A stretch of DNA of 64,000 nt from a virus. The stretch lies in IMG/VR virus record IMGVR_UViG_3300025276_000033, positions 1-64,000 of that record. One strand, written 5' to 3'. Positions 6,043-62,358 of the stretch are shown piece after piece (the first letter of the stretch is position 1; the number at the start of each line of letters is the position of its first letter). The notes beneath the pieces are model-generated. The model made no database searches, was not told where the DNA came from, and was given only the letters and a program-made list of their open reading frames with translations. The translations under genes and the position numbers were made by a program.

Positions 6043-7674
6043 ATGAAAGATTACTTATTAATAGAAAAATCAAAATTTTCAGTAAAACCTATCGCCAATG
6101 CCTCCGATAACGACAAATATGTTTTAGAAGGTGTATTTACAGAATTCGATTCTGAAAATAGAAATGGTAGAGTTTATACTAGAAAAGAATTTCAACCACA
6201 TTTTGACGCATTAAAAAAAGTTGTAGAAAGTGGAACAGCTGTTGGAGAATTAGACCATCCAAAACAATTTGAAACTACATTGAGAAATGTATCTCATAAA
6301 ATTGAAGAAATTTGGATGGATGAAGAAAACAATAGAGTAATGGGAAAAATCAAATTATTAGATACCGATGCTGGTAAACAAGCAAAGGCAATCGTTGATG
6401 CTGGAATTCCTTTACACATATCATCAAGAGCTGCCGGAACTGTTACAGAAGATAAATCTGTAAAGATTCATAAACTATTTACATATGATTTAGTTGATAC
6501 ACCAGGTTTTGCAAATGCAAGATTGAGTAGTGTAAATGAATCATTCGGAATGCTAAATGAAAATACAGAATTAGATGTATTTAGTGATTTTGCAATCTAT
6601 GAAATAGGTAAACAAATAAAGCAAGATATTAAAGAGTTAAATAATAAAAATAAGAACGTAGAAACAATGGATTATCTAAAAGAAAGCGAATTCAACAAAT
6701 ACACAGATTTCACAAAAGAAGCAATAGAAGGTGTTAAATCCGAAATTGCAGACATGAAAGAAATTCAAGAAAGTATTATTGAACAAAACGATGGTATCGT
6801 AGAAGAATACAGCAATGCTGAATTCAAACAAAAATTTGAATCTGTAAATCAAAAATTATCAGCAATCGAAAAATGGGCTGACCACGTAAAAGAAGAATTT
6901 GATTCTGTTAAAGAAAGTTCGGATTCATCTTTACAAGAAAAGTATGATAAATTAGAAGCAAAATTTGAATCAATGGTTAATTGGTCTGAACATGTAACTG
7001 AAACTGTTAGTGCAATAGAAGATTGGTCACAACATACAACAGACACTGTTAATGGTGTAGAATCTTGGTCAAAGCATGTAACTGAAACTGTAAGTGCGTT
7101 AGAAGATTGGTCAGACCATGCAACGGATACTGTTTCTGGTGTAGAATCTTGGTCTAATCACGTAACTGAATCTGTTAGTTCAATCGAAAATTGGACTGAA
7201 CATGTAACTGAGTCTGTATCAATGTTAGAAAATTCTGATACGAAAGAATTAAGTAAAGGAAATGAAAAAATCAACGAATCAAAAATCGAAGATTTTAAAG
7301 AAAGTATATATAATAAACTAGAGAATATCTTAGAAGCTAAGGAGCAAAGAGCAACTGACAACAACTCTCTAAACGAATCACAAACCGTAGATTTAAACGA
7401 AGGTAAAGAAGAAGCGCCATTATGGATGCAACTTATACCTACAAAGTATAAAGAAACTTATAGTGATTTACAAGAAGGCGAAAAGTTAAGAATTAAAAAA
7501 AGAGCTTCACTTTTCAATTTCGTTAATGAATCGGCAATCAAGTCATTTTGGAACAATGAGTTCACAAAAGAAAATTTGATTAAAGAGGAAAAAAAGGAAA
7601 ATGTTGAAAACCCATCTCAAAGTCAACTTACGGAAGCAAGACTTGCTAAGTTAAGAGGATTTAGAATGATTTAA
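6043..7674 (+). CDS. prohead core protease fused to scaffold (gp21 + gp22-like)
   Basis: 543 residues. Residues ~25-165 are a gp21/U9-type prohead serine protease: GRVYTRKEFQ, GELDHP (catalytic His72), IPLHISSRAAG (Ser127/128) and DLVDTPGFANARL (Asp152). T4 gp21 is only 212 residues. Here the frame continues into about 370 residues of charged, coiled-coil scaffold, including six 14-residue repeats with a regular Trp (residues ~314-397). Putative self-cleavage sites VNE|S (166) and LNE|N (173) lie exactly at the junction, and INE|S, LNE|S and LNE|G follow near the C-terminus, consistent with scaffold being degraded to peptides as gp22 is in T4. An in-frame ATG at 6667 (residue 209) after an A-rich stretch could also start a separate scaffold. 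Confidence 0.9.
   Translation: MKDYLLIEKSKFSVKPIANASDNDKYVLEGVFTEFDSENRNGRVYTRKEFQPHFDALKKVVESGTAVGELDHPKQFETTLRNVSHKIEEIWMDEENNRVMGKIKLLDTDAGKQAKAIVDAGIPLHISSRAAGTVTEDKSVKIHKLFTYDLVDTPGFANARLSSVNESFGMLNENTELDVFSDFAIYEIGKQIKQDIKELNNKNKNVETMDYLKESEFNKYTDFTKEAIEGVKSEIADMKEIQESIIEQNDGIVEEYSNAEFKQKFESVNQKLSAIEKWADHVKEEFDSVKESSDSSLQEKYDKLEAKFESMVNWSEHVTETVSAIEDWSQHTTDTVNGVESWSKHVTETVSALEDWSDHATDTVSGVESWSNHVTESVSSIENWTEHVTESVSMLENSDTKELSKGNEKINESKIEDFKESIYNKLENILEAKEQRATDNNSLNESQTVDLNEGKEEAPLWMQLIPTKYKETYSDLQEGEKLRIKKRASLFNFVNESAIKSFWNNEFTKENLIKEEKKENVENPSQSQLTEARLAKLRGFRMI
6982..7233 (+). repeat. six tandem 42 bp (14 aa) repeats in scaffold
   Basis: Protein repeat WSxHVTETVSxxED/S, six copies spaced exactly 14 residues, with alternating VTETVSAIED and TTDTVNGVES types. 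A more diverged copy begins near residue 277 (WADHVKEEF). Fourteen residues equal two heptads, suiting a long coiled-coil core rod. Confidence 0.85.
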
Positions 7675-7711: not shown

Positions 7712-9415
7712 ATGAACAAACATCAATTATTAGAAAACTGGAGTCCAGTTATCGAACAAACAATTGGAACGGGTGTAGACAAATCTAAAAAAGAATTAGT
7801 TGCTACAATCTGTCAATTACAAGAAAACTACGAAGCAAGACTTGGTGGTGGATTAAATGAAAATAACTTTTACGCACAACCTGGTTCTGTAAATGGTATG
7901 GGAGCGGTATCTTTACCGAATGTATCAACTGGAGCTCAAGGTTCTGGAGATGTACCTTATTCTCTATTACCATTAGCAATTCAAGTTGCTGCACAAACAA
8001 TTGGATTGGAATTAGTTCCAACTATTCCAATGAATTCACCAGTAGGAATGTTATCTTATATGGATTTCGTTTACGGTGGAGGTAAGAATGGATATGCTGC
8101 AATAGCTGACCCATATGCTACTGGAACTGATGGTAAATCACCTAATTCTCCACTTTACGTTAAATTTAAAGCTGTAGATGTTACTGCGGGTGCTATTGTT
8201 GATGGTGCTACGTTTACTTTTGTAAATGCAAATGGAAATGGAGTTGTTGAAGCATTGTTATTTACGGTTCTTGGAAAATCAAGAATTGATGGATATGTAA
8301 TTGCTAAAGTGCCGGAAAAATTAACCGGAACTAATACAATTGCAGCTATAATTCCTGCAGTTACGGCAACGGGAGCGGGAACAGTAATTGTTGGTACAAA
8401 CCCTGGAACAGTAGGAGCTGCTGGAACTTTTAACATTGAATCTAAAGCAGAATTAGTTAAAGGTTTAGAAGACCACATCGTTGATTTCTCATCTAACCAA
8501 GGTGTTTCTGAATATGGTGAAGTTACTAAAATGACTAGACAACAAGGTGAAGCTATTCAATCTAATACTGGAAACCTTCAATTATTCTCTAAAGCTATTG
8601 AAGCAAAAACGGTTCAAGCCGCTGCTGCAGTAACAAGAGAGCAATTAATGGATTTAAAACAATTCGGTATTGATGCGGTTGCACAAGCAAACCAATTCTT
8701 AGCTAACGAAATGACACAAGTTATCAATAAAGATATTCTTAGTAACATTTTCACACTAGGAAAAACAAACCACGTAAACATTGAAGCTGTTTCTGGTAGA
8801 AACTATCACTTGTCTTTAACAAGTAACGTTGGAACTGATACTATTGCTGTATTAGGTGCTGTTACTGGAAATTCTTGGTGGAATTATTTCGCAGGAATGG
8901 GTGTTGTAAATCGCGTTGATGTATCTAATTTAGGTGCTGAAAACTTAGGAACAAGACAAAGACGTTTAATGTCTAGAATGCTTGCATCTTCTAACATTAT
9001 CTCTGTAAGAGGTAGAAGAGGACCCGCTACATTTGCAGTTTGTTCTGGAGGTGTTGCAACTGGATTCCAAGATTGTGCTGGATTCGTTCCTTACCCAATC
9101 GCTAACACTATCAATCAAGTTCCTGGAGCATTGTATCCATTAGGAACATTAGCTGGTATTGCAATTTATGTTGACCCGAATATGACTTGGGAAGATGGTA
9201 GAATTGCATTAGGTAGAAAAGGAGACGGTAATACACCTGGTCTTGTATTCATGCCTTATGTTATGGCTGATACTGTTGAAACAATTGCAGAAGGAACTAT
9301 GGCTCCTAAAATGCAAATGAAGTCTAGATATGCTATTGTTCAAGCTGGACATCACCCAGAAACAATGTACCTTACAATAGGGTGTGTTAATTCTGTTGAT
9401 GGTGGATGGTCTTAA
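7712..9415 (+). CDS. major capsid protein (gp23-like)
   Basis: 567 residues; T4 gp23 has 521. It has the family N-terminus (LLENWSPVIEQ), the VPYSLLPLAIQVAAQTIGLELVPTIPM segment, YGEVTKMTRQQGEAIQ, AKTVQAAAAVTREQLMDLKQFGIDA, and LGTRQRRLMSRMLASSNIISVRGRRGPA. A Gly/Thr/Ala-rich insert of roughly 90 residues (about 155-245) probably forms a surface insertion domain. The likely prohead-protease site is GLNE|NN after Glu50, comparable to the Glu65 cleavage in T4 gp23. No exact late element is seen; TTTAAAATA lies near 7670. The gene ends in a terminator, as expected for a highly expressed gene. Confidence 0.95.
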   Translation: MNKHQLLENWSPVIEQTIGTGVDKSKKELVATICQLQENYEARLGGGLNENNFYAQPGSVNGMGAVSLPNVSTGAQGSGDVPYSLLPLAIQVAAQTIGLELVPTIPMNSPVGMLSYMDFVYGGGKNGYAAIADPYATGTDGKSPNSPLYVKFKAVDVTAGAIVDGATFTFVNANGNGVVEALLFTVLGKSRIDGYVIAKVPEKLTGTNTIAAIIPAVTATGAGTVIVGTNPGTVGAAGTFNIESKAELVKGLEDHIVDFSSNQGVSEYGEVTKMTRQQGEAIQSNTGNLQLFSKAIEAKTVQAAAAVTREQLMDLKQFGIDAVAQANQFLANEMTQVINKDILSNIFTLGKTNHVNIEAVSGRNYHLSLTSNVGTDTIAVLGAVTGNSWWNYFAGMGVVNRVDVSNLGAENLGTRQRRLMSRMLASSNIISVRGRRGPATFAVCSGGVATGFQDCAGFVPYPIANTINQVPGALYPLGTLAGIAIYVDPNMTWEDGRIALGRKGDGNTPGLVFMPYVMADTVETIAEGTMAPKMQMKSRYAIVQAGHHPETMYLTIGCVNSVDGGWS

Positions 9416-19581: not shown

Positions 19582-20028
19582 ATGAAATCATTAAACGAAT
19601 TCTTAAACGAAAGTTATTCGGGTCCTGAATCAATTAACTTTAAAAAAGAACTTGAATTAGGTTCTGACAATGTTTATGTAACATACAAATATAAAGGAAA
19701 AGTAGAAACGATTTCAGTTCAAAGTAAACCATTAAAGTCATACCCAGAATGGGCAATAAAAAATGACAAAAAAATGTATAAAATTATAAATAAAAACGTA
19801 AAGGGAGTAACTTTTAAAGAATCGGAAACATCTGGAATTGTAAGTCTTTTTTTAAAAGGAGAATTTGATATAACATTTGATGATTCATTATTGCATGGTA
19901 GTGGTAAAAATAATAATTTGATGCTCTTAAGCGGTTTAGACGATTTTAATTCAGATTTAGTAATTAGATGTTCAACAGATTACTTAAAGTATGGTGATGT
20001 TACTTATCACGATGATCCAGCAAATTAA
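19582..20028 (+). CDS. CTS protein: putative internal head protein, unknown cargo (148 aa)
   Basis: Begins MKSLNEFLNE|S, the shared leader that aligns with the T4 capsid-targeting sequence; the bar marks the predicted prohead-protease cut. The mature part (138 residues) is beta-rich, with YVTYKYKGKVETISVQ and GIVSLFLKGEFDITFD, and without a recognised family. First of four consecutive leader-bearing genes between the hub gene and the tape-measure genes. Confidence 0.75.
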   Translation: MKSLNEFLNESYSGPESINFKKELELGSDNVYVTYKYKGKVETISVQSKPLKSYPEWAIKNDKKMYKIINKNVKGVTFKESETSGIVSLFLKGEFDITFDDSLLHGSGKNNNLMLLSGLDDFNSDLVIRCSTDYLKYGDVTYHDDPAN

Positions 20029-20031
20029 ATA
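20023..20031 (+). promoter_or_regulatory. putative late promoter
   Basis: AATTAAATA, 19 nt before the ATG at 20051, overlapping the stop of the preceding gene. Confidence 0.5.
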
Positions 20032-20050
20032 AGAAAAGAAACAGTACAAT

Positions 20051-20908
20051 ATGAAACACTTAAATGAATTTTTAAACGAAGCAAAGGATGTAGGACACTA
20101 CGAAAGGATAGGAAATCAAACTATTGTTGATAGCAATTTTGTAAATTACAGTAAAGGATGCCTTCCGGATTCTGAATTAGTACATTTAGGTATGGGAGAT
20201 TTTCAATTAAAAACACCTAAAGGTAATATAACTTTTAATCGTTCTGGTAAAATAGTAGGAATCGGTCAAGACTTTGTAGGTAGACCACATAGAGCAACTG
20301 ATGACAAAGGTGGTAAAGTTCTTGAAGAATTAATAAAGGTGATGACTAAAAAGAAAAAAGCTGTATTAAGTATGGCCGGATTGGATGAATCTAAAAAACC
20401 AGTTACTGATAAATATGGTTGGCACATAAAACCTTTTTTCAAAGAAGGAGAAAAAGTATTGTATTATGGTGAACCAGCAGAAATATCGCGAGTACGTGAT
20501 GATGGTAACAAAGTTACTTATGATGTGAAATATACTAATCAAAGAGGGTTTCAATCATTTGTTAACAATAAATCGGGCGAAATAAAAAAATTGAATGAAA
20601 TAAATCAATACACAGGAGAAGCTGAAAAATCAGAAAAGTATTGGGATACTAAATTCAAGAAAGCAATTAAATTGTTTCCTACCTGGGCTGATGAAAAGGT
20701 TGATATAACAAACGAAATTAGACAAGTTTATAACGAAAGAATATTAGATGTTACTAAAGGAGACAAAGGATATGTTGAACCGATTAGTAGATATGAGGGA
20801 GATGTTGAAATTTATATTGAAATGTCAACTGACCTTTGGAATAAAATGAAAGGTGATGTTATTGCAAAAGAATATGCACTTGAAGATTATGTTCGTTGGC
20901 TTAAATAA
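20051..20908 (+). CDS. CTS protein with SH3-like domain (285 aa)
   Basis: Begins MKHLNEFLNE|A. After the leader there are at least two regions: residues ~15-110 unknown, and FKEGEKVLYYGEPAEISRVRD with TYDVKYTN (about 132-165), which looks like a small SH3/KOW-type barrel. KKLNE|IN near residue 180 is another possible protease cut and would split off a C-terminal ~105-residue piece. No enzyme motif. Likely a packaged head protein by its leader and its late-type promoter. Confidence 0.75.
   Translation: MKHLNEFLNEAKDVGHYERIGNQTIVDSNFVNYSKGCLPDSELVHLGMGDFQLKTPKGNITFNRSGKIVGIGQDFVGRPHRATDDKGGKVLEELIKVMTKKKKAVLSMAGLDESKKPVTDKYGWHIKPFFKEGEKVLYYGEPAEISRVRDDGNKVTYDVKYTNQRGFQSFVNNKSGEIKKLNEINQYTGEAEKSEKYWDTKFKKAIKLFPTWADEKVDITNEIRQVYNERILDVTKGDKGYVEPISRYEGDVEIYIEMSTDLWNKMKGDVIAKEYALEDYVRWLK
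20900..20907 (+). promoter_or_regulatory. possible late promoter
   Basis: CTTAAATA, 15 nt before the ATG at 20923, inside the end of the preceding gene. Weaker match. Confidence 0.3.
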
Positions 20909-20922
20909 AATTAGATAAAATT

Positions 20923-21438
20923 ATGAAATCATTAAACGAATTTTTAAACGAAGCAAAGAACTATGGTACTAAAGTTGGTAATCTTAGTAAAAAAGACTTG
21001 GAATCTACTGAGGCACTTAGGGATGCACTACAAAGTAAAACCAAAAAAGGCATTGTAGATGATTACGAAGAAGGAAAAACTATGTTCGGTCAAGTATATC
21101 CATCTAGAGTTTCTATCTTTACTTATGGTTCATCACCTGATGATAGGGATGGTAGCAAAAAACTAGTAGAACTATTTGCAAAAGATGGTAAACTTTATCT
21201 ATATGGATTCAGAGCAATAAGAGGTAATAAAATTAATGATGAAGCATTTAATGGTAGACTAAGAAACGAAACACCAGGTGGACTTTCTGGTACTGCTGAT
21301 TACTTTGGAACAGATAATAAAGGAATACAAATTACAACAAAACAATTAAATCAACTTTTAGGTATGATTGAAGCACAAGCAAGTGCCGAAGGACAAGCAT
21401 TTGCAGACTTCTATAAAGATTGGAAAAATCCAGATTAA
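20923..21438 (+). CDS. CTS protein, unknown cargo (171 aa)
   Basis: Begins MKSLNEFLNE|A. The mature domain (KVGNLSKKDLESTEAL ... LYLYGFRAIRGNKINDEAF ... DYFGTDNKGIQITTKQLNQ) is mixed alpha/beta and not recognised. The next leader-bearing gene starts 3 nt after the stop. Confidence 0.75.
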   Translation: MKSLNEFLNEAKNYGTKVGNLSKKDLESTEALRDALQSKTKKGIVDDYEEGKTMFGQVYPSRVSIFTYGSSPDDRDGSKKLVELFAKDGKLYLYGFRAIRGNKINDEAFNGRLRNETPGGLSGTADYFGTDNKGIQITTKQLNQLLGMIEAQASAEGQAFADFYKDWKNPD

Positions 21439-21441
21439 GAT

Positions 21442-21714
21442 ATGAAACATTTAAACGAATTTTTAAACGAAGGTAAAGGTAACCACGATGAAATAGAATC
21501 TTTTCTAAAAACAATCTTTAAGAAAGTTAGTAAAACTACAAATAGTGGAGTTACAGATTTTTATGGAGATGTTCCAATAAATAAAATGCCAAATTGGTCA
21601 GGTCCTCTAAAAGTTGTTGTTGGTCGTGATGGACTTTCTTCAATTGAAGGTATGGAAGATGAGGTATTTGATAAGGATGCTCTATTCAAAGAACTTACAC
21701 AAATTACTAAGTAA
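21442..21714 (+). CDS. CTS protein, unknown cargo (90 aa)
   Basis: Begins MKHLNEFLNE|G. The mature part is 80 residues (ESFLKTIFKKVSKTTNSGV ... DGLSSIEGMEDEVFDKDAL), not recognised. No promoter element of its own; read through from 20923. Ends in a terminator. Confidence 0.7.
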   Translation: MKHLNEFLNEGKGNHDEIESFLKTIFKKVSKTTNSGVTDFYGDVPINKMPNWSGPLKVVVGRDGLSSIEGMEDEVFDKDALFKELTQITK

Positions 21715-26196: not shown

Positions 26197-29100
26197 TTAT
26201 TGTACTGAAAATTCTCCCAATGCAATTGCTCCTGTTTTAAGGATAGTAACTCTTTGTACAAGTTTACCTAAACCTCTAACTGGTTCCAATGCAATATCAA
26301 TAATACCCATATCGTTATCAATAACTTCACTAGTATTATTTACTGTGTTCATAACCGTTTGATAATCGAAAAGACCACCATCGTTTAATATTTGACTTAG
26401 GAAACCATCAACTAAAGTTTTGATTTCTAGTCTATTTTGAACGGTATTGAATTCCCATCTATAACTTTTAAGAATTTGCTCAACAGTTTCTTCTATGTAT
26501 ATCAACAATTCTCTTACGTGAATGCTTGATAGTGCAGATTTTATGTTTTGTTGTGCCGTTTGGTTAGCATTGATTACGTTTCCGAAACCTCTGTTTGGTA
26601 CAATAACATTCAATCCGAAAGGTTCTACTGAATCTAATCCGGTTCTATCATAAATGTATTCTACACCTACAACATTATTTCCAGATACTACACCTCTTCT
26701 TGGTCCTGCAATTATAGAGTAAGGTTTATCACTTCTATATTTTGCCATAAAGTTATTAGAAATATACGCAGCTGGCGGAACCAATTTAGTACTTGGCCCT
26801 TCTCTCAATACTAAGTACGGATGATAGAAACCACAGTAGTTAGAACCTTGATTTAAACTTGGTAACGAAAATGTGTTACTTGGGTTCAATGCTTGGTTAC
26901 CACCGGTACCAACAAATCTTGGGTCATAATCAGCTCTACTATCAAATTTGAACAATGGATTCGTTGAATCATCAAGTTCTTTAACAGAAGGTGCATTTAA
27001 AATTGCAAATGCAAATTGTCTGTTTTTACACAATGACGATAAAATGTTTTTAGAATTAGGTTCAATCACACCATCAAAAGTATCAACAATATATCTAAAG
27101 GTAATTGCTTCTTTATCTGACAATGCTCCATATAATCCTGTGCTAGTCAAAGTTGATAAAATTGCATTTTGTGTGGCAGTAGTTCCATCAGGAATTTGCG
27201 CTGCTCTCATTGTAAATCCGTCTAATCCTTGAACATTATAATTTGTAACAAAGTTTGCAACTGATTTATATCTTTCAACTGTTACATTATTTGTACCGAA
27301 ATAAACCGGGTCAAGTGTTTTAACCGTTACAACATTAGTAGTTGTATTTTCTTTTACAGACAATATTCTAGTATATCTAGTGTTTCCGGTTCTAGCATCA
27401 ACTTTAGTTTTAGTTGAACCAACTGTAAATCCTCTTACTAAGAAATCTTCCGGTGTAATTTGGCCAAGTGCATAAGTAGTACTTAGGTAAGTAAACTCAT
27501 AATCGTTAACTTTAGTTACCGTAAAAGATGCATTAATGGCTCCCGCTTTTGACTTAATCTTCATTGGGGTTGCTATTGTAGCTGCATTGGTCGTTGGGGT
27601 CAATTTATAGTAAGTTATATTATGTGAAAGTATATTTGAACCTAATAAAGTACTTAAATCTACACTACCATTATCAACTTTCGATACTATACTAAATGTA
27701 TCATATACATCAGTATCGTATTCAACATCATCACCACTTGAAAGAGTACCAGAATCATAATCTTCTCCAGCATCTGTAGTTTTTGTAAAGATGTATGTAC
27801 CACCTAATATACTTTGAATTCCAACATCTGGATTACCTTTTACAGATTCATCAGCACCAGCGGAAACTTCGAAATACATAGAATTTGCGGCTTCGTCTTT
27901 TGCATATATTTGAATCTCTACTCTATCAAATAATATATTAACGGTTTTTACAAGTGCGTAAGTTGTTGTTGTTCCTGTACAACTCATAAACGAAACATTC
28001 GCTTTAATAGAATTTGCATAAGCCAACCAAGCTGCCGATTTTGCTGCTGCATCAGCACCAGTAAATGGACTTGTTCCAACAGGAGCTTCTGATGCTGTTG
28101 CACCAGGATTATAAATTACTATTGTATCGTATTGATTTGCAGCTAAACCAGCATCAGCATCTGTTACTTTAAATAGTGCTGTTGTAGCCGAACCATCAGT
28201 TGCTTCTACGTTTCCTAAAAATGTTTTTTCTCCTACCGAATATAATTCAGTAGCATAGCTTAAACTTTCTGTAACACCTCCCAAGTATGAAAGATAATCA
28301 ATTTTGTTTAAGTTAGATGTACCTTCAATTGTACCACCTAGTAAATCAATGACATTACCGGATAACATAGTTGAACCATCAAACAAGTCCTCATCAACAG
28401 AACAGAAAAGTCCAGTAAATGATGTTTCTAAGTTAACTAAATCTTGAATGAATAAATCATTTCCTTCAGCATCTTGGAAATTAGGAATTAATACACCTAT
28501 GTATTCCCCTAAAGAAACTACACTAGGACTATCTAAAAATGCTACAAGACCATCGCTCGTATTTCCAGCAGTATCTTTATATACCTTTTTAATTCCGTTA
28601 GAATCGAAATAATCTCCCAATATTGGGTCTACTGACAATTTTTCGAAATCAGTATAATCTCCTTTTATAATATTAACTCTAATACAATAATCATTAATGT
28701 AATCAGAACCATCTATAAATTCAGGAACATCAGCTTCACCGTACCAATCGTTTGCTGTTGTATCAAGACCTTGAATTCTATCTTGAGTTACAATAACAGA
28801 AAATGTCTTTCTTCCAACATTCGAAAAGTTCAATAATTCTTTTGTATACCCTTCTTGTGCTTCAATATTTTTTAATGCCTTTTCAGTATCTAACTTAAAG
28901 AACTTAGATGTATTGAAATTTCCAGAAAGAGGAGCATATCCCGTTTTTTGGTTTTTGTCTTTTGCTGATGTAGAAAAACTAATAAATTCAGTCTTATCTA
29001 AAGTATCATTTAATTTTAACAAGTTCAATGCTATAATTGGTGAATCCAATAACATTTCTTGAGCACTTAGGTGAAAGTAAGAACCTTTCTTTTCTAATTG

Positions 29101-29298
29101 CTTATCTCTTTTACCGTACACATCCTGAAAGAATGAAAAATCCTGGCAAAATACAGGAGTATTGAACGGTCCAACTTTACTAAATCCAATAATCATTCTT
29201 ATTGTAGAAGTAGTAGTTGTTACTATTTGTGATTTGTCGAATTCAAATGTGTATATTCCACTTGATTTGATATTCGATAAATAAACTGGTAAACTCAT
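26197..29298 (-). CDS. tail sheath protein (gp18-like), enlarged
   Basis: 1033 residues against 659 in T4. The N-terminus (VYLSNIKSSGIYTFEFDKS) and the C-terminal block (SLCKNRQFAFAILNAP, KYRSDKPYSIIAGPRRGVV, IHVRELLIYIEETVEQIL, then LDGFLSQ-like GFLSQILNDGGLFDYQTVM and DIALEPVRGLGKLVQRV) are the conserved sheath core. The middle (about 240-660) is rich in Thr, Ser, Gly, Asp and Ala and appears to be inserted beta-sandwich surface domains. A late element lies 20 nt before its ATG on the minus strand. Confidence 0.92.
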   Translation of the reverse strand: MSLPVYLSNIKSSGIYTFEFDKSQIVTTTTSTIRMIIGFSKVGPFNTPVFCQDFSFFQDVYGKRDKQLEKKGSYFHLSAQEMLLDSPIIALNLLKLNDTLDKTEFISFSTSAKDKNQKTGYAPLSGNFNTSKFFKLDTEKALKNIEAQEGYTKELLNFSNVGRKTFSVIVTQDRIQGLDTTANDWYGEADVPEFIDGSDYINDYCIRVNIIKGDYTDFEKLSVDPILGDYFDSNGIKKVYKDTAGNTSDGLVAFLDSPSVVSLGEYIGVLIPNFQDAEGNDLFIQDLVNLETSFTGLFCSVDEDLFDGSTMLSGNVIDLLGGTIEGTSNLNKIDYLSYLGGVTESLSYATELYSVGEKTFLGNVEATDGSATTALFKVTDADAGLAANQYDTIVIYNPGATASEAPVGTSPFTGADAAAKSAAWLAYANSIKANVSFMSCTGTTTTYALVKTVNILFDRVEIQIYAKDEAANSMYFEVSAGADESVKGNPDVGIQSILGGTYIFTKTTDAGEDYDSGTLSSGDDVEYDTDVYDTFSIVSKVDNGSVDLSTLLGSNILSHNITYYKLTPTTNAATIATPMKIKSKAGAINASFTVTKVNDYEFTYLSTTYALGQITPEDFLVRGFTVGSTKTKVDARTGNTRYTRILSVKENTTTNVVTVKTLDPVYFGTNNVTVERYKSVANFVTNYNVQGLDGFTMRAAQIPDGTTATQNAILSTLTSTGLYGALSDKEAITFRYIVDTFDGVIEPNSKNILSSLCKNRQFAFAILNAPSVKELDDSTNPLFKFDSRADYDPRFVGTGGNQALNPSNTFSLPSLNQGSNYCGFYHPYLVLREGPSTKLVPPAAYISNNFMAKYRSDKPYSIIAGPRRGVVSGNNVVGVEYIYDRTGLDSVEPFGLNVIVPNRGFGNVINANQTAQQNIKSALSSIHVRELLIYIEETVEQILKSYRWEFNTVQNRLEIKTLVDGFLSQILNDGGLFDYQTVMNTVNNTSEVIDNDMGIIDIALEPVRGLGKLVQRVTILKTGAIALGEFSVQ

Positions 29299-36691: not shown

Positions 36692-36970
36692 ATGAAACCA
36701 TTAAACGAATTTCTTAACGAAGGAAAATACCAAAAAGTTTGGCAAACAGAAAAATATATAAATGCTGATGGTATTGAATTAGTAGGTGATAAACACGCTA
36801 GTCCAGCTGACCAAGTATATCAAATTAATAAAAATAAAAAACAAGTAGGTTCATTTAGTTTTGATAGAGAAACTGATGGTTATTGGTTGTCAGCACCGTC
36901 TTTAGGATTTGAACAAGAATCTTTTGATACTATTGATGGCATAATCAAATTTGTAAAAAAGAATCTGTAA
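36692..36970 (+). CDS. CTS protein, unknown cargo (92 aa)
   Basis: Begins MKPLNEFLNE|G. The mature part is 82 residues, mixed alpha/beta (VGSFSFDRETDGYWLSAP). The upstream spacer AAAAATAAAAAAGATATG is nearly the same as that before 36359. Confidence 0.7.
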   Translation: MKPLNEFLNEGKYQKVWQTEKYINADGIELVGDKHASPADQVYQINKNKKQVGSFSFDRETDGYWLSAPSLGFEQESFDTIDGIIKFVKKNL

Positions 36971-36975
36971 CAAGT

Positions 36976-37302
36976 ATGAAAGCTTTAAATGAATTTCTTA
37001 ACGAAGGAAAAAAACTGTCGATAGATTATAATATAGACCCAGAAAAGAATTGGTCAGCTATTTCTGATATACTTATGGGTATTAAAGATAAAAAATCAGC
37101 TAAAGAATTTATTGATGAATATGAAAATTATGTAAAGAACATTTACAAAGATGAAAAAATGGTGCAATATGGTAATTTAGTTTATGCTGCAATTGAATCT
37201 ATTTGGCACAATATTGACGAATGGGAAGGTACAGAAGATGCATATCCATTATCAAGTGATGTTTGGCAAAAGATTGTATCCAAAAAAACAGATAATTTAT
37301 AA
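36976..37302 (+). CDS. CTS protein, unknown cargo (108 aa)
   Basis: Begins MKALNEFLNE|G, 5 nt after the preceding stop. The mature part is acidic and helical (SAISDILMGIKDKKSAKEF). No recognised family. Confidence 0.7.
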   Translation: MKALNEFLNEGKKLSIDYNIDPEKNWSAISDILMGIKDKKSAKEFIDEYENYVKNIYKDEKMVQYGNLVYAAIESIWHNIDEWEGTEDAYPLSSDVWQKIVSKKTDNL

Positions 37303-44416: not shown

Positions 44417-44725
44417 ATGAAAGCATTAAGTGAATTTCTAAACGAATCAAAATCATTTACTTCAAATCCTAATATTAAAGAACTTGAAAAGGGATTGACT
44501 GTGCGTATCACAAACAACAAGAAAAACATTAGTGGTCCTGGAACGTTTACCTTTGGTAGTGCTTCTAAAATCGGTAAGATTGTAAGTATAGATAAAAACG
44601 AAGTTACTGTTGAAATTAACAAAAAAACAATAACCGTAACAGCTGTTGGTAGTAATGGTAATATGGGTGGTGATTTTGAAATAGTTAATGAATCAATGTA
44701 TAATTATATGTATCCTTTTTTATAA
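44417..44725 (+). CDS. CTS protein, beta-rich cargo (102 aa)
   Basis: Begins MKALSEFLNE|S. The remainder (IKELEKGLTVRITNNKKNISGPGTFTFGSASKIGKIVSIDKNEV) looks like a small SH3/KOW-like barrel, similar in style to the cargo of 36359. IVNE|SMYN near the C-terminus could be a second cut. Confidence 0.72.
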   Translation: MKALSEFLNESKSFTSNPNIKELEKGLTVRITNNKKNISGPGTFTFGSASKIGKIVSIDKNEVTVEINKKTITVTAVGSNGNMGGDFEIVNESMYNYMYPFL

Positions 44726-48873: not shown

Positions 48874-49869
48874 ATGAATGAATACAAATTTCCGTATGAA
48901 TGGACACTAAAAGATGCAGTCTTTACAAAAGATAAAGGTAAAGTTTTCAGTTGTTTTGCTTGTGGTGGTGGTTCTACTATGGGATATAAGTTAGCAGGAT
49001 TTGATGTTTTAGGATGCAATGAGATTGATCCGAAAATGATTGAAGCTTACAGAACAAACCATAAACCTAAATATAGTTTTTTAGAACCTATCCAGGATTT
49101 CAAAAGTAAAAAGGATTTACCAAAAGAACTTTTCAATTTAGATATCTTAGATGGTAGTCCACCTTGTAGTAGTTTTTCTATGGCCGGACTGAGAGAAAAA
49201 GCGTGGGGTAAACAGAAAAAATTTAGAGAAGGACAAGCTCTTCAAATATTAGATACTTTATTTTTCGATTTTATTGACCTTGCAGAAAGATTACAACCTA
49301 AAGTAGTTATCGGAGAAAACGTAAAAGGATTGTTACTAGGTAATGCAAAGAGTTATGTTGAAAAGATTTATAAGGCATTTGATAAGGCCGGTTTTATCTG
49401 TCAACACTTTTTACTAAAGGGGTCTGATATGGGCGTTCCGCAAGGAAGAGAGCGAGTTTTCTTTGTATGTCTTAGAAAAGATTTAGCAAAAAGATTTATT
49501 AAAATAAATAATCTATTTGAAGAAAAACCTTATCTAAATTTAGATTTCAACGAAAAACCTATTCTTTCTAAGGAAGTTGTTACTAGAGGAAAACCAATAA
49601 GTAATAAAACAAGTTACCTTGAATCTAGATATGGTGACATTCTGTTTAATCCGGATAAAGTTTTCAATACTATATGTACAAGAAATAGATATTTCTATGA
49701 TTTAAAACATTATGTATCTGATGAAACATATTTGAAAGCTGGAACTTATCCTATGGATTATGACTTTGTAAAAACACAACCTTTATACTTAACAGGAATG
49801 TCTGTACCACCAGTAATGACTGCACAAGTTGTTAGTAGAGTTTATGAACAATGGTTATCAAAAATATAA
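48874..49869 (+). CDS. cytosine-5 DNA methyltransferase A1
   Basis: 331 residues; first of six consecutive C5 methyltransferases. Motif I FSCFACGGGSTMGYKLAGF (SAM binding), motif IV DGSPPCSSFSMAG (nucleophile Cys98), motif VI GENVKG, motif VIII PQGRERVFFVC, motif X GMSVPPVMTAQVVSRVYEQW. The recognition region (about 215-295) is short and unlike those of A2-A4, while residues ~15-210 are nearly the same as theirs. ENV is present, so activity is plausible. One base separates it from A2. Confidence 0.9.
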   Translation: MNEYKFPYEWTLKDAVFTKDKGKVFSCFACGGGSTMGYKLAGFDVLGCNEIDPKMIEAYRTNHKPKYSFLEPIQDFKSKKDLPKELFNLDILDGSPPCSSFSMAGLREKAWGKQKKFREGQALQILDTLFFDFIDLAERLQPKVVIGENVKGLLLGNAKSYVEKIYKAFDKAGFICQHFLLKGSDMGVPQGRERVFFVCLRKDLAKRFIKINNLFEEKPYLNLDFNEKPILSKEVVTRGKPISNKTSYLESRYGDILFNPDKVFNTICTRNRYFYDLKHYVSDETYLKAGTYPMDYDFVKTQPLYLTGMSVPPVMTAQVVSRVYEQWLSKI

Positions 49870-49870
49870 T

Positions 49871-50932
49871 ATGAAAGAACCTAAGTACAATTACGAATGG
49901 ACCATAAAAGATGCAACATTTACAAAAGATAAAGGAAAAGTATTTTCTTGCTTTGCTTGTGGAGGTGGTTCTACTATGGGTTACAAGTTGTCCGGATTTG
50001 ATGTTTTGGGTTGTAACGAAATAGACCCCAAAATGATTGAAGCTTACAGAGCAAATCATAAACCTAAATATAGTTTTTTAGAACCTATTCAAGATTTTAA
50101 AAATAGAAAAGATTTACCTGAGGACCTATACAATTTAGATATCTTAGATGGGTCACCACCTTGTAGTAGTTTTTCTATGTCAGGATTGAGAGAAAAAGCA
50201 TGGGGAAAGCAAAAGAAATTTAGAGAAGGTCAATCCTTGCAAGTTCTTGATACCCTATTTTTTGATTTTATTGACCTTGCAGAAAGATTACAACCTAAAG
50301 TTGTAGTTGCTGAAAATGTCAAAGGATTATTAATGGGTAATGCAAAAGAATATGTTGAAAAGATTTACAAGGCATTTGATAAGGCAGGTTTCGTTTGTCA
50401 ACATTTCCTTTTGAATAGTGCTAGGATGGAAGTTCCACAAAGAAGAGAACGAGTTTTCTTTATTTGTCTTAGAAAAGATTTAGCAAAATCCTTTGCACAT
50501 CAAAAAGATATGTTTACAATTATCCCAAAACTTTCTTTGAACTTTAATTGTAAAACAATACCTTTCAAACTTATTGAAGACAATTCTGATTTGAATATAA
50601 AAGACGATACTAAAATTTCTACGTTTTGGGATTTAGTAGATGTCGGACAACAGTTTTCTAGGGCACATCCAAAAGGTAGTTTTTTTAATGATAATAAAAC
50701 ACACCCAGATAAACCAATAACAACAATCACTGCCGATACAGGACACGGAAGTTGGCATTATTCTATCAAAAGAAGATTGAATGATTTAGAAATAATACGA
50801 GCTGGTACATATCCTTTAGATTATAATTTTTGTAGGAATAGACCAAAATACTTAATAGGTATGAGTGTTCCACCTATTATGACAGCACAAATTGCAGATA
50901 AAATTTACGACCAATGGTTATCAAAGATATGA
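49871..50932 (+). CDS. cytosine-5 DNA methyltransferase A2
   Basis: 353 residues from the ATG at 49871 (MKEPKYNYEWTIKD); a start at 49829 would overlap A1. It has the same catalytic motifs as A1: FACGGGSTMGYKLSGF, SPPCSSFSMSG, AENVKG, QRRERVFFIC, and GMSVPPIMTAQIADKIYDQW. The region between motifs VIII and IX-X (KISTFWDLVDVGQQFSRAHP ... ITADTGHGSWHYSI) is unrelated to the other three A-type genes. Its stop overlaps the A3 start as ATGA. Confidence 0.9.
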   Translation: MKEPKYNYEWTIKDATFTKDKGKVFSCFACGGGSTMGYKLSGFDVLGCNEIDPKMIEAYRANHKPKYSFLEPIQDFKNRKDLPEDLYNLDILDGSPPCSSFSMSGLREKAWGKQKKFREGQSLQVLDTLFFDFIDLAERLQPKVVVAENVKGLLMGNAKEYVEKIYKAFDKAGFVCQHFLLNSARMEVPQRRERVFFICLRKDLAKSFAHQKDMFTIIPKLSLNFNCKTIPFKLIEDNSDLNIKDDTKISTFWDLVDVGQQFSRAHPKGSFFNDNKTHPDKPITTITADTGHGSWHYSIKRRLNDLEIIRAGTYPLDYNFCRNRPKYLIGMSVPPIMTAQIADKIYDQWLSKI

Positions 50933-51996
50933 AAGAACATAAATATAATTACGAATGGACTTTAAAAGATGCCGTCTTTACAAAAGATAGAGGTAAAGTA
51001 TTTTCTTGTTTTGCTTGTGGGGGTGGTTCTACTATGGGATATAAACTTTCTGGTTTCGATGTTTTAGGATGCAATGAAATTGATCCAAGAATGATTGAAG
51101 CTTACAGAACAAACCACAAACCGAAATATAGTTTTTTAGAATCAATAACAACTTTCAAAGACCGCAAAGATTTACCTGAGGACTTGTACAATTTAGATAT
51201 CTTAGATGGTAGTCCACCTTGTAGTAGTTTTAGTATGGCAGGTGTTCGTGAAAAAGCATGGGGAAAGCAAAAGAAATTTAGAGAAGGACAATCTTTACAA
51301 GTCTTAGATACTCTATTTTTCGATTTCATTGATTTAGCAAAAGAACTCAAACCTAAAGTTGTGATTGCTGAAAATGTCAAAGGATTATTAATGGGTAATG
51401 CAAAAGAATATGTTGAAAAGATTTATAAAGCATTCGATGAAGCCGGATATTATTGTCAACATTTTCTTTTGAACAGTTCTAAGATGTCTGTTCCACAAAG
51501 AAGAGAACGAGTTTTCTTTATTTGTCTTAGAAAAGATTTATCAAAACCTTTTATGGATCAAAAGGATTTGTTCAATAACAAACCTAAGATTAATTTAGAT
51601 TTCAACGAACCTGGAATTCTTTTTGAAGAAATATATGATGGATTAGGAAAACCTATTACTGAATATAAAATGAAAGCATTTGAATGTAGGCAACCTAATG
51701 ATAATGGTATTGCTGATAGTAAACGACACGCTGGAATGAAAGTTTCTGATTACAATTGTGTCTATGTTAAACACGATAAAGTAATGCCAACAATCACAGG
51801 AAAAGCTGAACACGCAATGTTGTTGTATAACGAACCTATAAAACCAAGTAATACCGAATTGAGAAAAGGTGGAACTTATCCTATGGATTATGAATTTAGT
51901 AATATCGGATATTTGATTGGAATGAGTGTACCTCCTGTTATGACGGCACAAGTTGCAGATAGAATTTACGACCAATGGTTATCAAAAATAAAATAG
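50929..51996 (+). CDS. cytosine-5 DNA methyltransferase A3
   Basis: 355 residues from the ATG at 50929 (MKEHKYNYEWTLKD), overlapping A2 by 4 nt. Motifs are as in A1/A2 (SPPCSSFSMAG, AENVKG, QRRERVFFIC, GMSVPPVMTAQVADRIYDQW). The recognition region (AFECRQPNDNGIADSKRHAG ... MPTITGKAEHAMLLYNEP) differs from A1, A2 and A4. Confidence 0.9.
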   Translation: MKEHKYNYEWTLKDAVFTKDRGKVFSCFACGGGSTMGYKLSGFDVLGCNEIDPRMIEAYRTNHKPKYSFLESITTFKDRKDLPEDLYNLDILDGSPPCSSFSMAGVREKAWGKQKKFREGQSLQVLDTLFFDFIDLAKELKPKVVIAENVKGLLMGNAKEYVEKIYKAFDEAGYYCQHFLLNSSKMSVPQRRERVFFICLRKDLSKPFMDQKDLFNNKPKINLDFNEPGILFEEIYDGLGKPITEYKMKAFECRQPNDNGIADSKRHAGMKVSDYNCVYVKHDKVMPTITGKAEHAMLLYNEPIKPSNTELRKGGTYPMDYEFSNIGYLIGMSVPPVMTAQVADRIYDQWLSKIK

Positions 51997-56780: not shown

Positions 56781-57122
56781 ATGAGATCATTAAACGAATT
56801 TTTAAACGAATCAGAATTAACAGAATCTAAAAGAGAAATAGGAAAATATTATAATGCTGCCAGAAAAGCAAGAGCTACAGATTTAACACAAGTAGATTCT
56901 GATTATGGTGACTTAGTAAAATTAAGTGGTACTAAACAAAACCATACTAGAAAGAATGCTGGTGCATCATTTAACTTTATAGGTGCAGATGGAGATTGGG
57001 TAGAAATATACTATGACGAAAAACAAGAAAAGGTTTTGATGGCGAAAAATACTGGCATCGTTAATCCAGATTTTCATACTAAAGGTAGCATTTCTATTGA
57101 AGATATGTTAAAATTAATATAA
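56781..57122 (+). CDS. CTS protein, unknown cargo (113 aa)
   Basis: Begins MRSLNEFLNE|SELTE|S, giving two closely spaced candidate cuts. The mature part (KYYNAARKARATDLTQVDSDYG ... FIGADGDWVEIYYDEKQEK) is alpha then beta; not recognised. It stands among early-type genes but has its own late element and follows a terminator. Confidence 0.75.
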   Translation: MRSLNEFLNESELTESKREIGKYYNAARKARATDLTQVDSDYGDLVKLSGTKQNHTRKNAGASFNFIGADGDWVEIYYDEKQEKVLMAKNTGIVNPDFHTKGSISIEDMLKLI

Positions 57123-59830: not shown

Positions 59831-60232
59831 ATGAAATCAATAAACGAATTTATAAACGAAGGACTTAAAGATAAATTTTTAAATCTTTTCAAGAAAAAAG
59901 ATAAAGATGAAAGAATAGTAAATCGTTCAGTAGTGGGAACCTATGAAGTAACTAAATCATTTCATAATGGATTTAAAGATTACTTTGATGTTGGAGATAA
60001 AATTTCTATTGATTATGAGGTTAAATATCCAAATAGAAAGGATAAAAAATATGAACACTATGTTATTTATCATATGCCAATAAAGGGAGAGGACTTAAAT
60101 ATGGAAATTTTCAATGCAAATAACCAAGAAAACTACGACAGTGTATTATCAAATCTAAAAAAGATTTCAAATAAACCAGACACATCATTGACGAATAGAC
60201 ATTTTGGATTATCACAAAATTACTATACATGA
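59831..60232 (+). CDS. CTS protein, unknown cargo (133 aa)
   Basis: Begins MKSINEFINE|G (Ile for Leu in both key positions, as in T4 FIAE). Then a basic LKDKFLNLFKKKDKDERIV segment and a beta-rich domain (VGTYEVTKSFHNGFKDYFDVGDKISIDYEV). Not recognised. Followed by a terminator. Confidence 0.75.
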   Translation: MKSINEFINEGLKDKFLNLFKKKDKDERIVNRSVVGTYEVTKSFHNGFKDYFDVGDKISIDYEVKYPNRKDKKYEHYVIYHMPIKGEDLNMEIFNANNQENYDSVLSNLKKISNKPDTSLTNRHFGLSQNYYT

Positions 60233-60319: not shown

Positions 60320-61237
60320 ATGAATTTAGGATACGCATGTATAAATCAAACACTTTCAAAAGATAAGATTACATCTAACAGGGGCATGATTAAAAGAACC
60401 TTTATTGCAAAAGGAATGCCTTACTGTTCTGAACTTGCTTTGCAAAATGTCAGAGACCTTTTCAAAATAGTTCAATGGAACACAAGAAACAAAATCAAAG
60501 TTTTCAGAATGTCTTCGAATATATTTCCGTGGATGTCCGAATACGAATTGACCGATTTACAAGATTGGCCAAAGATTGAAAACATTCTAAAAGCAATAGG
60601 TAAACACGCAAACGAAAATGATGTTCGTTTATCTTTTCATCCAGGACCGTTCAATATTCTTTGTTCACCAAAAATAGAAGTTGTTGAAAAGACTATCAAA
60701 GAACTTGACCAACATTGTTTCATTCTCGATACTATGGGATTAGAAATTTCAAGAAAGCACAAAGTCAATATTCATATCGGAGGTGCATATGGCGACAAAG
60801 ATTCTGCAATGAATAGATGGATCGACAATTTCAAAAGACTATCCGACAGTGCTAAAAAAAGATTGACTATTGAAAATGATGACAAACTTTCAATGTATGC
60901 AGTAGAAGATTTACTTTATGTTTCTAAAAAAACAAATGTTCCTATTGTGTTCGATTTTCATCATCACGATTGTCATCCTGGAATATTGACAAAAGAACAA
61001 GCATTGAAAAGTGCATTAGAAACTTGGCCAAAAGATATTATTCCAATGACACATTACAGTTCATCAAGAAAGATATACGAAGATTCTACTGTAAAGAATG
61101 TTGCACATGCAGATTACTTGTATGAGCCAATTCCTTTTACAGACAAATATGTTTTTGATGTAGTCTTAGAAACTAAAGCAAAGGAACTTGCAAGAATTAA
61201 ATACCTTAAAGAATTTACATTATATGAAACCACTTAA
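60320..61237 (+). CDS. uvdE: UV damage endonuclease (UvdE/UvsE family)
   Basis: 305 residues. NLGYACINQTL at the N-terminus, FRMSSNIFPWMS, RLSFHPGPFNIL, NIHIGGAYGDK, LTIENDD, PIVFDFHHHDCHPG and MTHYSSSR are the strand-end metal-ligand motifs of this TIM-barrel family. It nicks DNA 5' to UV photoproducts and starts repair without a separate photolyase or excision system. Transcribed from its own early promoter. Its 3' end overlaps the next leader-bearing gene. Confidence 0.95.
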   Translation: MNLGYACINQTLSKDKITSNRGMIKRTFIAKGMPYCSELALQNVRDLFKIVQWNTRNKIKVFRMSSNIFPWMSEYELTDLQDWPKIENILKAIGKHANENDVRLSFHPGPFNILCSPKIEVVEKTIKELDQHCFILDTMGLEISRKHKVNIHIGGAYGDKDSAMNRWIDNFKRLSDSAKKRLTIENDDKLSMYAVEDLLYVSKKTNVPIVFDFHHHDCHPGILTKEQALKSALETWPKDIIPMTHYSSSRKIYEDSTVKNVAHADYLYEPIPFTDKYVFDVVLETKAKELARIKYLKEFTLYETT

Positions 61238-61697
61238 CGAATTTTTAAATGACGAAAAACAATATACTAAGTTAAACGAAGGTAAGATGCATACTATTGT
61301 AAGTGAATTGGCAACCGAATTTAAAGCTGAAGTTAAAACTAATCAATATGATTGGGCATTAGAACCTTTTATGACAAATAAAGTTTGGACTAAGATGAAT
61401 GGTAGAAAATATAAAGAACCAGGAAAATTTCGTGTTAACATATATAGAAATGATGATAAAGAAACCGTTGATGAGAAACGACAAGTACAAAATAATTTTT
61501 GGCCTTGGTTGATAAAACAATCAGGAGTTAAATCTATGGGCGAAGTTAGTGGAGAATTCGAGGGTGCTGGTTATAGTGAAGCTGTAGAATATAAAGGTGT
61601 TGTATTTATTAAAAGAAAAGACACAGATAAATATACAATAACAGAATACTTTTCTAAAGGTAGATTTAAAAATTCTGGAATGTGGAATCAAAAATAA
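61224..61697 (+). CDS. CTS protein, unknown cargo (157 aa)
   Basis: Start chosen at the ATG at 61224, which begins MKPLNEFLND; the longer frame from 61188 adds 12 residues overlapping uvdE. Asp replaces Glu at position 10, but YTKLNE|G (Glu19) supplies a clean site. The mature domain (HTIVSELATEFKAEVKTNQYDW ... GKFRVNIYRNDDKETVDEKRQ) is alpha/beta, not recognised. Overlaps uvdE by 14 nt. Confidence 0.7.
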   Translation: MKPLNEFLNDEKQYTKLNEGKMHTIVSELATEFKAEVKTNQYDWALEPFMTNKVWTKMNGRKYKEPGKFRVNIYRNDDKETVDEKRQVQNNFWPWLIKQSGVKSMGEVSGEFEGAGYSEAVEYKGVVFIKRKDTDKYTITEYFSKGRFKNSGMWNQK

Positions 61698-61710: not shown

Positions 61711-62358
61711 ATGAGACACCTTAACGAATTTTTGAATGAAAGTGAACTTGATGTTTCAGCATTAGAAAAGGATTTAAAAAATTATACCCAAATGGACGGA
61801 GAGTGGAAATCAGAAAAGAAGCTCGATGATATTTTTAAGGATATTGACATTAATAAAATGAAAAAACAATATCCGGATATATTTGAAATAAATTCTAGTT
61901 TGAATAAACCCAGTGTTTACGCATTTAGAGGAACAACAAAAGACATAAAAGAATTAAAAGCCTTAGGAAATCCAGATGAACTATATACAGATGCCAATTT
62001 AGGAACTTTGTTACTTTGGAATAAACAAAAAATAAAAAACCATAGTGAAATTCAATCGGTTACTATATATCCAAATGTTGCAAAAGGATTTGCAGAAAAT
62101 AGTAGTTCATATAATTTACCAGAATTTGGAGGAGGATACGATTTTAAATCTCCGATACCTACTATTTATTTTATTCCGGTTAAAGAAAACAAAAAACAGC
62201 TGTTTATGAATTATCAATATATGACTGAATTGAGCGGAATAGACGAAGGTGAATTCTTTCATAGTGGAAAACAATTCAAATCTGTTGATGTTGCAATAAT
62301 ATTTGATGAATCACTTTATGAACACTTTGATAAAGAAGAAATAGAAAAACTAAAATAA
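61711..62358 (+). CDS. CTS protein with ADP-ribosyltransferase-like domain
   Basis: 215 residues. Leader MRHLNEFLNE|S. The rest has the R-S-E layout of arginine-type mono-ADP-ribosyltransferases: VYAFRG (Arg73), SVTIYPNVAKGFAE (Ser116, with the phenylalanine-containing helix), and DEGEFFHSGKQFKSVDVAII, where E179-G-E181 is an ExE motif just before the usual G..F.V strand. In T4 the Alt ADP-ribosyltransferase is packaged with the DNA and modifies host RNA polymerase at once on infection; this protein would be an independent equivalent. Motifs read by eye; no structure prediction run. Confidence 0.65.
   Translation: MRHLNEFLNESELDVSALEKDLKNYTQMDGEWKSEKKLDDIFKDIDINKMKKQYPDIFEINSSLNKPSVYAFRGTTKDIKELKALGNPDELYTDANLGTLLLWNKQKIKNHSEIQSVTIYPNVAKGFAENSSSYNLPEFGGGYDFKSPIPTIYFIPVKENKKQLFMNYQYMTELSGIDEGEFFHSGKQFKSVDVAIIFDESLYEHFDKEEIEKLK

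What the first reader, a model, noticed from the sequence alone, without database searches (positions are those of the whole stretch)
61711..62358. Predicted packaged ADP-ribosyltransferase, a functional parallel to T4 Alt
The mature part behind MRHLNEFLNE has an R (YAFRG), S (SVTIYPN...GFA) and ExE (DEGEFF) series in the correct order and spacing for an R-S-E mono-ADP-ribosyltransferase. T4 Alt is also packaged through the same head pathway. The combination makes immediate modification of a host target plausible.
Basis: partly seen in the sequence, partly recalled or inferred. Interest (0 to 1): 0.78.

Follow-up and report, generated by a model that had tools for sequence, protein, structure and literature searches.

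The report
Possible head-packaged phage ADP-ribosyltransferase
A gene of a large Bacteroidota-type phage makes an orphan protein with a start tag that closely resembles phage T4's "pack me into the head" signal and a residue pattern typical of ADP-ribosyltransferases, so it may be an enzyme injected to modify the host, but its fold could not be confirmed.

Summary
The ORF is real: 215 aa at 61711-62358, coding-like codon use only in this frame. The leader is the best-supported part. It occurs exactly 9 times in the window (0 in 100 shuffles) and on 95 otherwise dissimilar proteins of fetched viral DNA. It matches the T4 IPII/IPIII capsid-targeting sequence MKTYQEFIAE in length and layout, and the genome has a T4-type head protease and a capsid protein with a conserved LNE site. 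Predicted: packaged and cut after Glu10. The ART part is plausible but unproven. Loose R..S..ExE is chance-level (40% of ORFs), but the fuller pattern [YWF]RG / SxT.....A..F / ExE is in 0 of 390 other ORFs, 1 of 400,000 shuffles and 13 of 13 ModA/ModB homologues. Against it: no relative in any collection searched, no profile hit, no usable model (pLDDT 33), and R-S spacing 43 against 24-27 in T4 Alt/ModA/ModB. A Pfam-certified ART-PolyVal with the same kind of leader exists in three related contigs. Packaged phage ARTs are already documented: at most a new member of a known kind.

The parts
61711..62358 (+). ORF of 215 aa: predicted head-packaged protein, candidate R-S-E ADP-ribosyltransferase
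   Evidence: frame-specific codon use
61711..61740 (+). leader MRHLNEFLNE: capsid-targeting-like decapeptide, predicted cleavage after Glu10 (LNE)
   Evidence: 9 exact copies in window, 0 in shuffles; 95 cargo proteins; T4 CTS comparison
61927..61929 (+). Arg73 of YAFRG (candidate NAD-binding Arg strand)
62056..62094 (+). Ser116-Val-Thr....Ala124..Phe127-Ala128 block (candidate S-T-S strand and following helix)
   Evidence: same register as ModA/ModB family
62245..62253 (+). Glu179-Gly-Glu181 (candidate ExE catalytic motif)
6043..7674 (+). head maturation protease (T4 gp21-type, with long scaffold-like tail): proposed processor of the leader
   Evidence: phrog_207, E=3.6e-40
7712..9415 (+). 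major capsid protein with LNE50/NN predicted cleavage site conserved in 7 of 8 relatives
   Evidence: phrog_138/28442; alignment
19582..21714 (+). four successive ORFs with the same leader (19582, 20051, 20923, 21442)
36692..37302 (+). two ORFs with the same leader (36692, 36976)
44417..44725 (+). ORF with leader MKALSEFLNE
56781..57122 (+). ORF with leader MRSLNEFLNE
59831..60232 (+). ORF with leader MKSINEFINE
61224..61697 (+). upstream neighbour with variant leader MKPLNEFLNDE

Best explanation
The gene makes an internal head protein. Its first ten residues act like the T4 capsid-targeting sequence: they bring the protein into the prohead core, the phage's T4-type head protease cuts after Glu10, and the mature 205-residue protein (Ser11-Lys215) is ejected with the DNA. 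The mature part is most likely an R-S-E-type mono-ADP-ribosyltransferase. Arg73 and Ser116 would hold NAD, and Glu181, with Glu179 making the ExE form, would transfer ADP-ribose to a host protein, probably on arginine, in the first minutes of infection. Shown: the gene, the leader family, the protease and capsid site, the motif constellation. Inferred: packaging, cleavage, ejection, ART fold, catalysis. The host target is unknown; RNA polymerase is only an analogy with T4 Alt.
For: Leader: 9 exact matches in the window against 0 in shuffles; 95 distinct leader proteins in fetched viral DNA, positions 5-10 reading N-E-F-L/I-N-E in nearly all, with unrelated downstream sequence; T4 has exactly two matches to MKTYQEFIAE. 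Codons vary synonymously under a constant peptide. Protease phrog_207; LxE site kept in 7 of 8 capsid relatives. ART: full motif constellation absent from 390 control ORFs, 1 in 400,000 shuffles, present in 13 of 13 Mod homologues. The S block matches Mod in register without gaps. Leader plus Pfam ART-PolyVal (E=4.7e-20) in three related contigs shows that the combination exists. Other leader cargo includes a phage protein-kinase family and GNAT.
Against: No homologue found in viral contigs, phages, plasmids, 84,980 species genomes (pattern scan) or about 400 Bacteroidota genomes. No Pfam, PHROG, NCBIfam or PDB sequence match. Models useless. R-S spacing is outside the T4 ART range. MAFFT does not align Arg73 or ExE to the Mod family. 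Likeness to the L168 protein beyond the preselected residues is marginal (p=0.04).
Confidence: 0.5

Rival explanations
1. It is a head-packaged internal protein of another, unknown kind (for example an inhibitor of a host defence enzyme, like T4 IPI), and the ART-like residues are coincidence.
For: Most leader cargo proteins have no recognisable enzyme domain; bare R-S-ExE is common by chance; no profile, homologue or fold supports ART; spacing differs from T4 ARTs.
Against: The full constellation is very rare by chance (1 in 400,000 shuffles) and matches Mod residues in register.
Confidence: 0.35
2. It has the ART fold but is not a protein mono-ADP-ribosyltransferase: for example an NAD hydrolase, a nucleic-acid ADP-ribosyltransferase, or an inactive descendant.
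For: ART-superfamily members in phages act on several substrates (PMC9503650); ExE alone does not fix the acceptor.
Against: ExE is the form associated with arginine-directed transferases (established knowledge); nothing here tests the acceptor.
Confidence: 0.1
3. The leader is not a capsid-targeting signal but another conserved N-terminal element (for example for assembly on a different structure, or for translation), so the protein is made and acts only inside the infected cell, like ModA/ModB.
For: No proteomics; some leader cargo (Rad52/Erf-like annealing protein, HAD phosphatase) would also make sense inside the cell; phrog_207 protease found in only 8 of 47 leader contigs, though these are fragments.
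Against: Same length and residue layout as the T4 capsid-targeting sequence; LNE is also the conserved capsid cleavage site; selection is on peptide, not DNA.
Confidence: 0.12

Closest known systems
T4 IPII/IPIII capsid-targeting sequence (CTS)
   Same: 10 residues, M-K/R-x-(L/Y)-(N/Q)-E-F-(L/I)-x-E, LxE/IxE end cut by the gp21-type protease
   Different: found in a Bacteroidota-type phage group on dozens of cargo proteins; processing not shown
T4 Alt
   Same: head-packaged, propeptide-bearing ART that acts at once on the host
   Different: Alt is 682 aa with propeptide MELITE and PF03496 match; this protein is 215 aa, no PF03496 match, R-S spacing 43 versus 25
T4 ModA/ModB family
   Same: size about 200 aa; [YWF]RG, S-x-S/T.....A..FA and ExE in the same order; S block in register
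   Different: R-S spacing 24-27 versus 43; no significant profile match; Mods are made in the cell and not packaged
ART-PolyVal (PF18760)
   Same: found with the same kind of leader (MKGLDEYLNE) in three related contigs
   Different: different ART family and motif set (LIVYHGT), no sequence likeness to this protein

Membership tests
R-S-E (arginine-type) mono-ADP-ribosyltransferase | Arg at end of first core strand, usually [YW]RG | tested here: met
   YAFRG, Arg73, by sequence only
R-S-E (arginine-type) mono-ADP-ribosyltransferase | S-T-S-like motif on a strand followed by a helix | tested here: met
   S116-V-T, then Ala +8 and Phe-Ala +11/+12 as in Mod, by sequence only
R-S-E (arginine-type) mono-ADP-ribosyltransferase | ExE catalytic motif | tested here: met
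   E179-G-E181, by sequence only
R-S-E (arginine-type) mono-ADP-ribosyltransferase | ART fold with the three motifs in one NAD pocket | tested here: inconclusive
   AlphaFold2 pLDDT 33
R-S-E (arginine-type) mono-ADP-ribosyltransferase | NAD-dependent transferase activity | not testable with these tools
   needs protein
T4 Alt family (phrog_802, PF03496) | profile match | tested here: not met
T4 Alt / ModA / ModB | R-S spacing 24-27 | tested here: not met
   43 here
ModA/ModB family (phrog_832) | profile match | tested here: not met
   not above background; the same profile also fails on Alt, so this says little about the fold
capsid-targeting-sequence cargo (T4 internal-protein type) | N-terminal decapeptide with hydrophobic 4, Phe 7, L/I 8, Glu 10 | tested here: met
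   T4 residue roles from PMC9026906
capsid-targeting-sequence cargo (T4 internal-protein type) | gp21-type protease in the same phage | tested here: met
   phrog_207 E=3.6e-40
capsid-targeting-sequence cargo (T4 internal-protein type) | present and cleaved in virions | not testable with these tools
   needs virion proteomics

The most novel reading that the evidence does not exclude
This phage group uses a T4-like ten-residue targeting tag as an interchangeable address label for a large set of head-packaged, host-modifying proteins (at least ten tagged proteins in this window; ARTs, a kinase-like protein and an acetyltransferase among related cargo), and this protein founds a new, so far single-member ART family within that set.
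Probability: 0.3. Interest if true: 0.65.

Novelty: new member of a known kind. Interest (0 to 1): 0.4.

Why it matters
Packaged ARTs are a documented theme in myoviruses (PMC9503650), with T4 Alt as the model, so one more candidate is not a surprise. What would matter is the address label: if the decapeptide is a true targeting tag shared between T4 and Bacteroidota phages, simply reading N-termini would list the injected proteins of a poorly studied group of large phages, and this protein would be one testable example.

Tried and rejected
Pfam, PHROGs, NCBIfam and PDB sequence searches: nothing. T4 ModA and ModB themselves have no significant Pfam match and a Mod profile does not find Alt, so these negatives carry little weight against the fold. 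Homologue searches in viral contigs, phages, plasmids, species genomes and Bacteroidota genomes: only chance hits, namely a tyrosine recombinase, a secreted 780-aa protein and a prolyl-oligopeptidase-like protein. Single-sequence AlphaFold2: pLDDT 33, discarded. Block-PSSM scan built from Mod and Alt: too family-specific, it preferred a site without Arg73. A gapped DNA pattern with this protein's own spacing gave 7 viral stretches, all open and in frame: an orphan protein in L166/L168 and a giant-protein family in L167/L169-L172. They look ART-like, but the L168 match to the Mod profile vanishes when the residues fixed by the pattern are masked, residual likeness to our protein is marginal, and a model of the giant-protein domain was poor (pLDDT 36); so I do not count them as proof. 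Fold search was not run because no model was reliable.

Full report
What is there. The ORF at 61711-62358 (+) encodes 215 aa and all quoted residues are present: leader MRHLNEFLNE, Arg73 in YAFRG, Ser116 in SVTIYPNVAKGFA, and Glu179/Glu181 in DEGEFF. Codon use trained on the structural genes scores +0.33 bits per codon in this frame and below zero in the other five, so it is a gene. It sits in a run of small co-directional ORFs next to a UvdE-type UV endonuclease.

Which phage. The window is most of a 66,011-base IMG/VR record. Portal, T4-type head protease, major capsid protein, clamp loader and DNA end protector are T4-like. The capsid protein is closest to large phages: an uncultured 462-kb phage (43.5%), Prevotella Lak phages, Sphingomonas PAU, Tenacibaculum PTm1. 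The UvdE gene is nearest to Bacteroidota genomes. The window is therefore a fragment of a large Bacteroidota-type T4-like phage; the host is inferred. A published group of large freshwater Bacteroidetes phages has a similar head-gene region (PMC9723584); I did not test membership.

The leader. The exact DNA pattern for M[KR]xxNEFxNE-type starts occurs 9 times in the window and 0 times in 100 shuffles; a slightly looser reading gives 10 in the window and 95 distinct proteins in the fetched viral DNA. Across these proteins N5, E6, F7, N9 and E10 are almost fixed, position 4 is L/F/Y/I and position 8 L/I/V, while the rest of the proteins share almost nothing (mean column identity 5%). In the window the codons vary under a constant peptide, so selection acts on the peptide. 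T4 carries exactly two copies of the pattern for MKTYQEFIAE, the CTS of IPII and IPIII; ten residues suffice for targeting there, residues 4 and 7 act in targeting, 8 and 10 in processing, and gp21 cuts after L/I-X-E (PMC9026906). The leader here has the same length and layout. The phage has the matching protease (phrog_207, E=3.6e-40), and its capsid protein has an LNE/NN site at residue 50 that is kept as L(N/M)E in 7 of 8 relatives. Packaging and cleavage after Glu10 are thus well-grounded predictions, not observations. The closer parallel is IPII/IPIII, since Alt has the six-residue propeptide MELITE.

The ART reading. R..S..ExE with loose spacing is found in 40% of unrelated ORFs and in 22% of shuffles of this protein, so the bare series has no weight. 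The fuller set, [YWF]R[GSA], S-x-[ST] with Ala at +8 and Phe at +11, and ExE, is absent from 390 other ORFs, present in 13 of 13 ModA/ModB homologues, found once in 400,000 shuffles, and found in no other of 5171 ORFs. It was defined from the Mod family after the protein had been seen, so I discount it. The spacing is not that of T4 ARTs: R to S is 43 against 24-27 in 22 Alt/Mod sequences, while S to ExE (63) is in range. From general knowledge, other ART families have longer R-S spacing, so this excludes close kinship with Alt/Mod, not the fold. No family library, structure sequence or homologue search gave a match, but ModA/ModB themselves have no significant Pfam match and a Mod profile misses Alt, so such negatives are weak. 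AlphaFold2 without homologues failed (pLDDT 33).

Attempted bridge. A gapped DNA pattern with this protein's residues and spacing was scanned over 2.9 million viral contigs and gave 7 stretches, all open and in frame, from two families. A 257-aa protein in L166/L168 has FRG, SFS.....A..FA and ESE with R-S 42, and giant tail-type proteins in L167/L169-L172 have FRG, SWS..., SEQEAIF. They look like ARTs, but they were selected on those residues: masking them abolishes the L168 match to the Mod profile, and anchored similarity to our protein beyond them is marginal (p=0.04). The model of the giant-protein domain was poor (pLDDT 36). I treat this as suggestive only.

Independent support for the combination. 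Scanning 94 leader proteins with Pfam found one certified ART, L031:2268-2750, with MKGLDEYLNE in front of an ART-PolyVal domain (E=4.7e-20), and near-identical copies in two further contigs with the same leader. Other cargo includes a protein matching a phage kinase family that inhibits host transcription, a GNAT acetyltransferase, a cytidyltransferase-like and Rad52/Erf-like proteins. So 'this leader in front of an ART' occurs in this phage group, though with a different ART family.

Verdict. Packaged internal protein: likely (about 0.85). ART fold: somewhat more likely than not (about 0.6, combining the first explanation and its ART-fold rival). Full proposal, a packaged R-S-E transferase: about 0.5. 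Packaged ARTs are established in myoviruses (PMC9503650; PMC5512222), so the finding is at most a new member of a known kind. The shared address label is the more interesting part.

Noticed in passing
window 19582, 20051, 20923, 21442, 36692, 36976, 44417, 56781, 59831, 61711; also 36359, 61224, 62903, 63235 (variants): A T4-CTS-like leader (MKxLNEFLNE) recurs on at least ten otherwise unrelated small proteins, suggesting a large set of head-packaged proteins.
   Followed up: partly
L031:2268-2750 (-), L175, L176, L177: ART-PolyVal (PF18760) proteins with leader MKGLDEYLNE in three related contigs: a Pfam-certified ART with the same kind of leader.
   Followed up: yes
L068:1614-2198 (+): Leader-bearing protein with a protein-kinase-like glycine loop; one leader protein matches phrog_15752, a phage kinase family that inhibits host transcription (assignment to this one is by eye).
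   Followed up: partly
L085:1970-2398 (-), L054:3226-3600 (+): Two further leader proteins that look ART-like by eye (VLYRG... / AYHVT...), without a Pfam match.
   Followed up: no
L167, L169, L170, L171, L172: Giant tail-tape-measure-type proteins with a conserved embedded domain carrying FRG, SSWSKS..IASFFA and SEQEAIFGGKF, possibly an ART inside the tail protein; no family match.
   Followed up: partly
window 60320-61237 (+): UvdE-type UV damage endonuclease (PF03851, E=7.7e-63), about 50% identical to Bacteroidota proteins, next to the leader genes.
   Followed up: no
window 49829-51996 (+): Two adjacent near-duplicate ORFs (49871 and 50929) that begin almost identically, next to a DNA methyltransferase gene at 48874; they look like a tandem duplication.
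   Followed up: no
window 26197-29298 (-): Tail sheath gene of 1033 aa on the opposite strand from nearly all other genes of the window.
   Followed up: no
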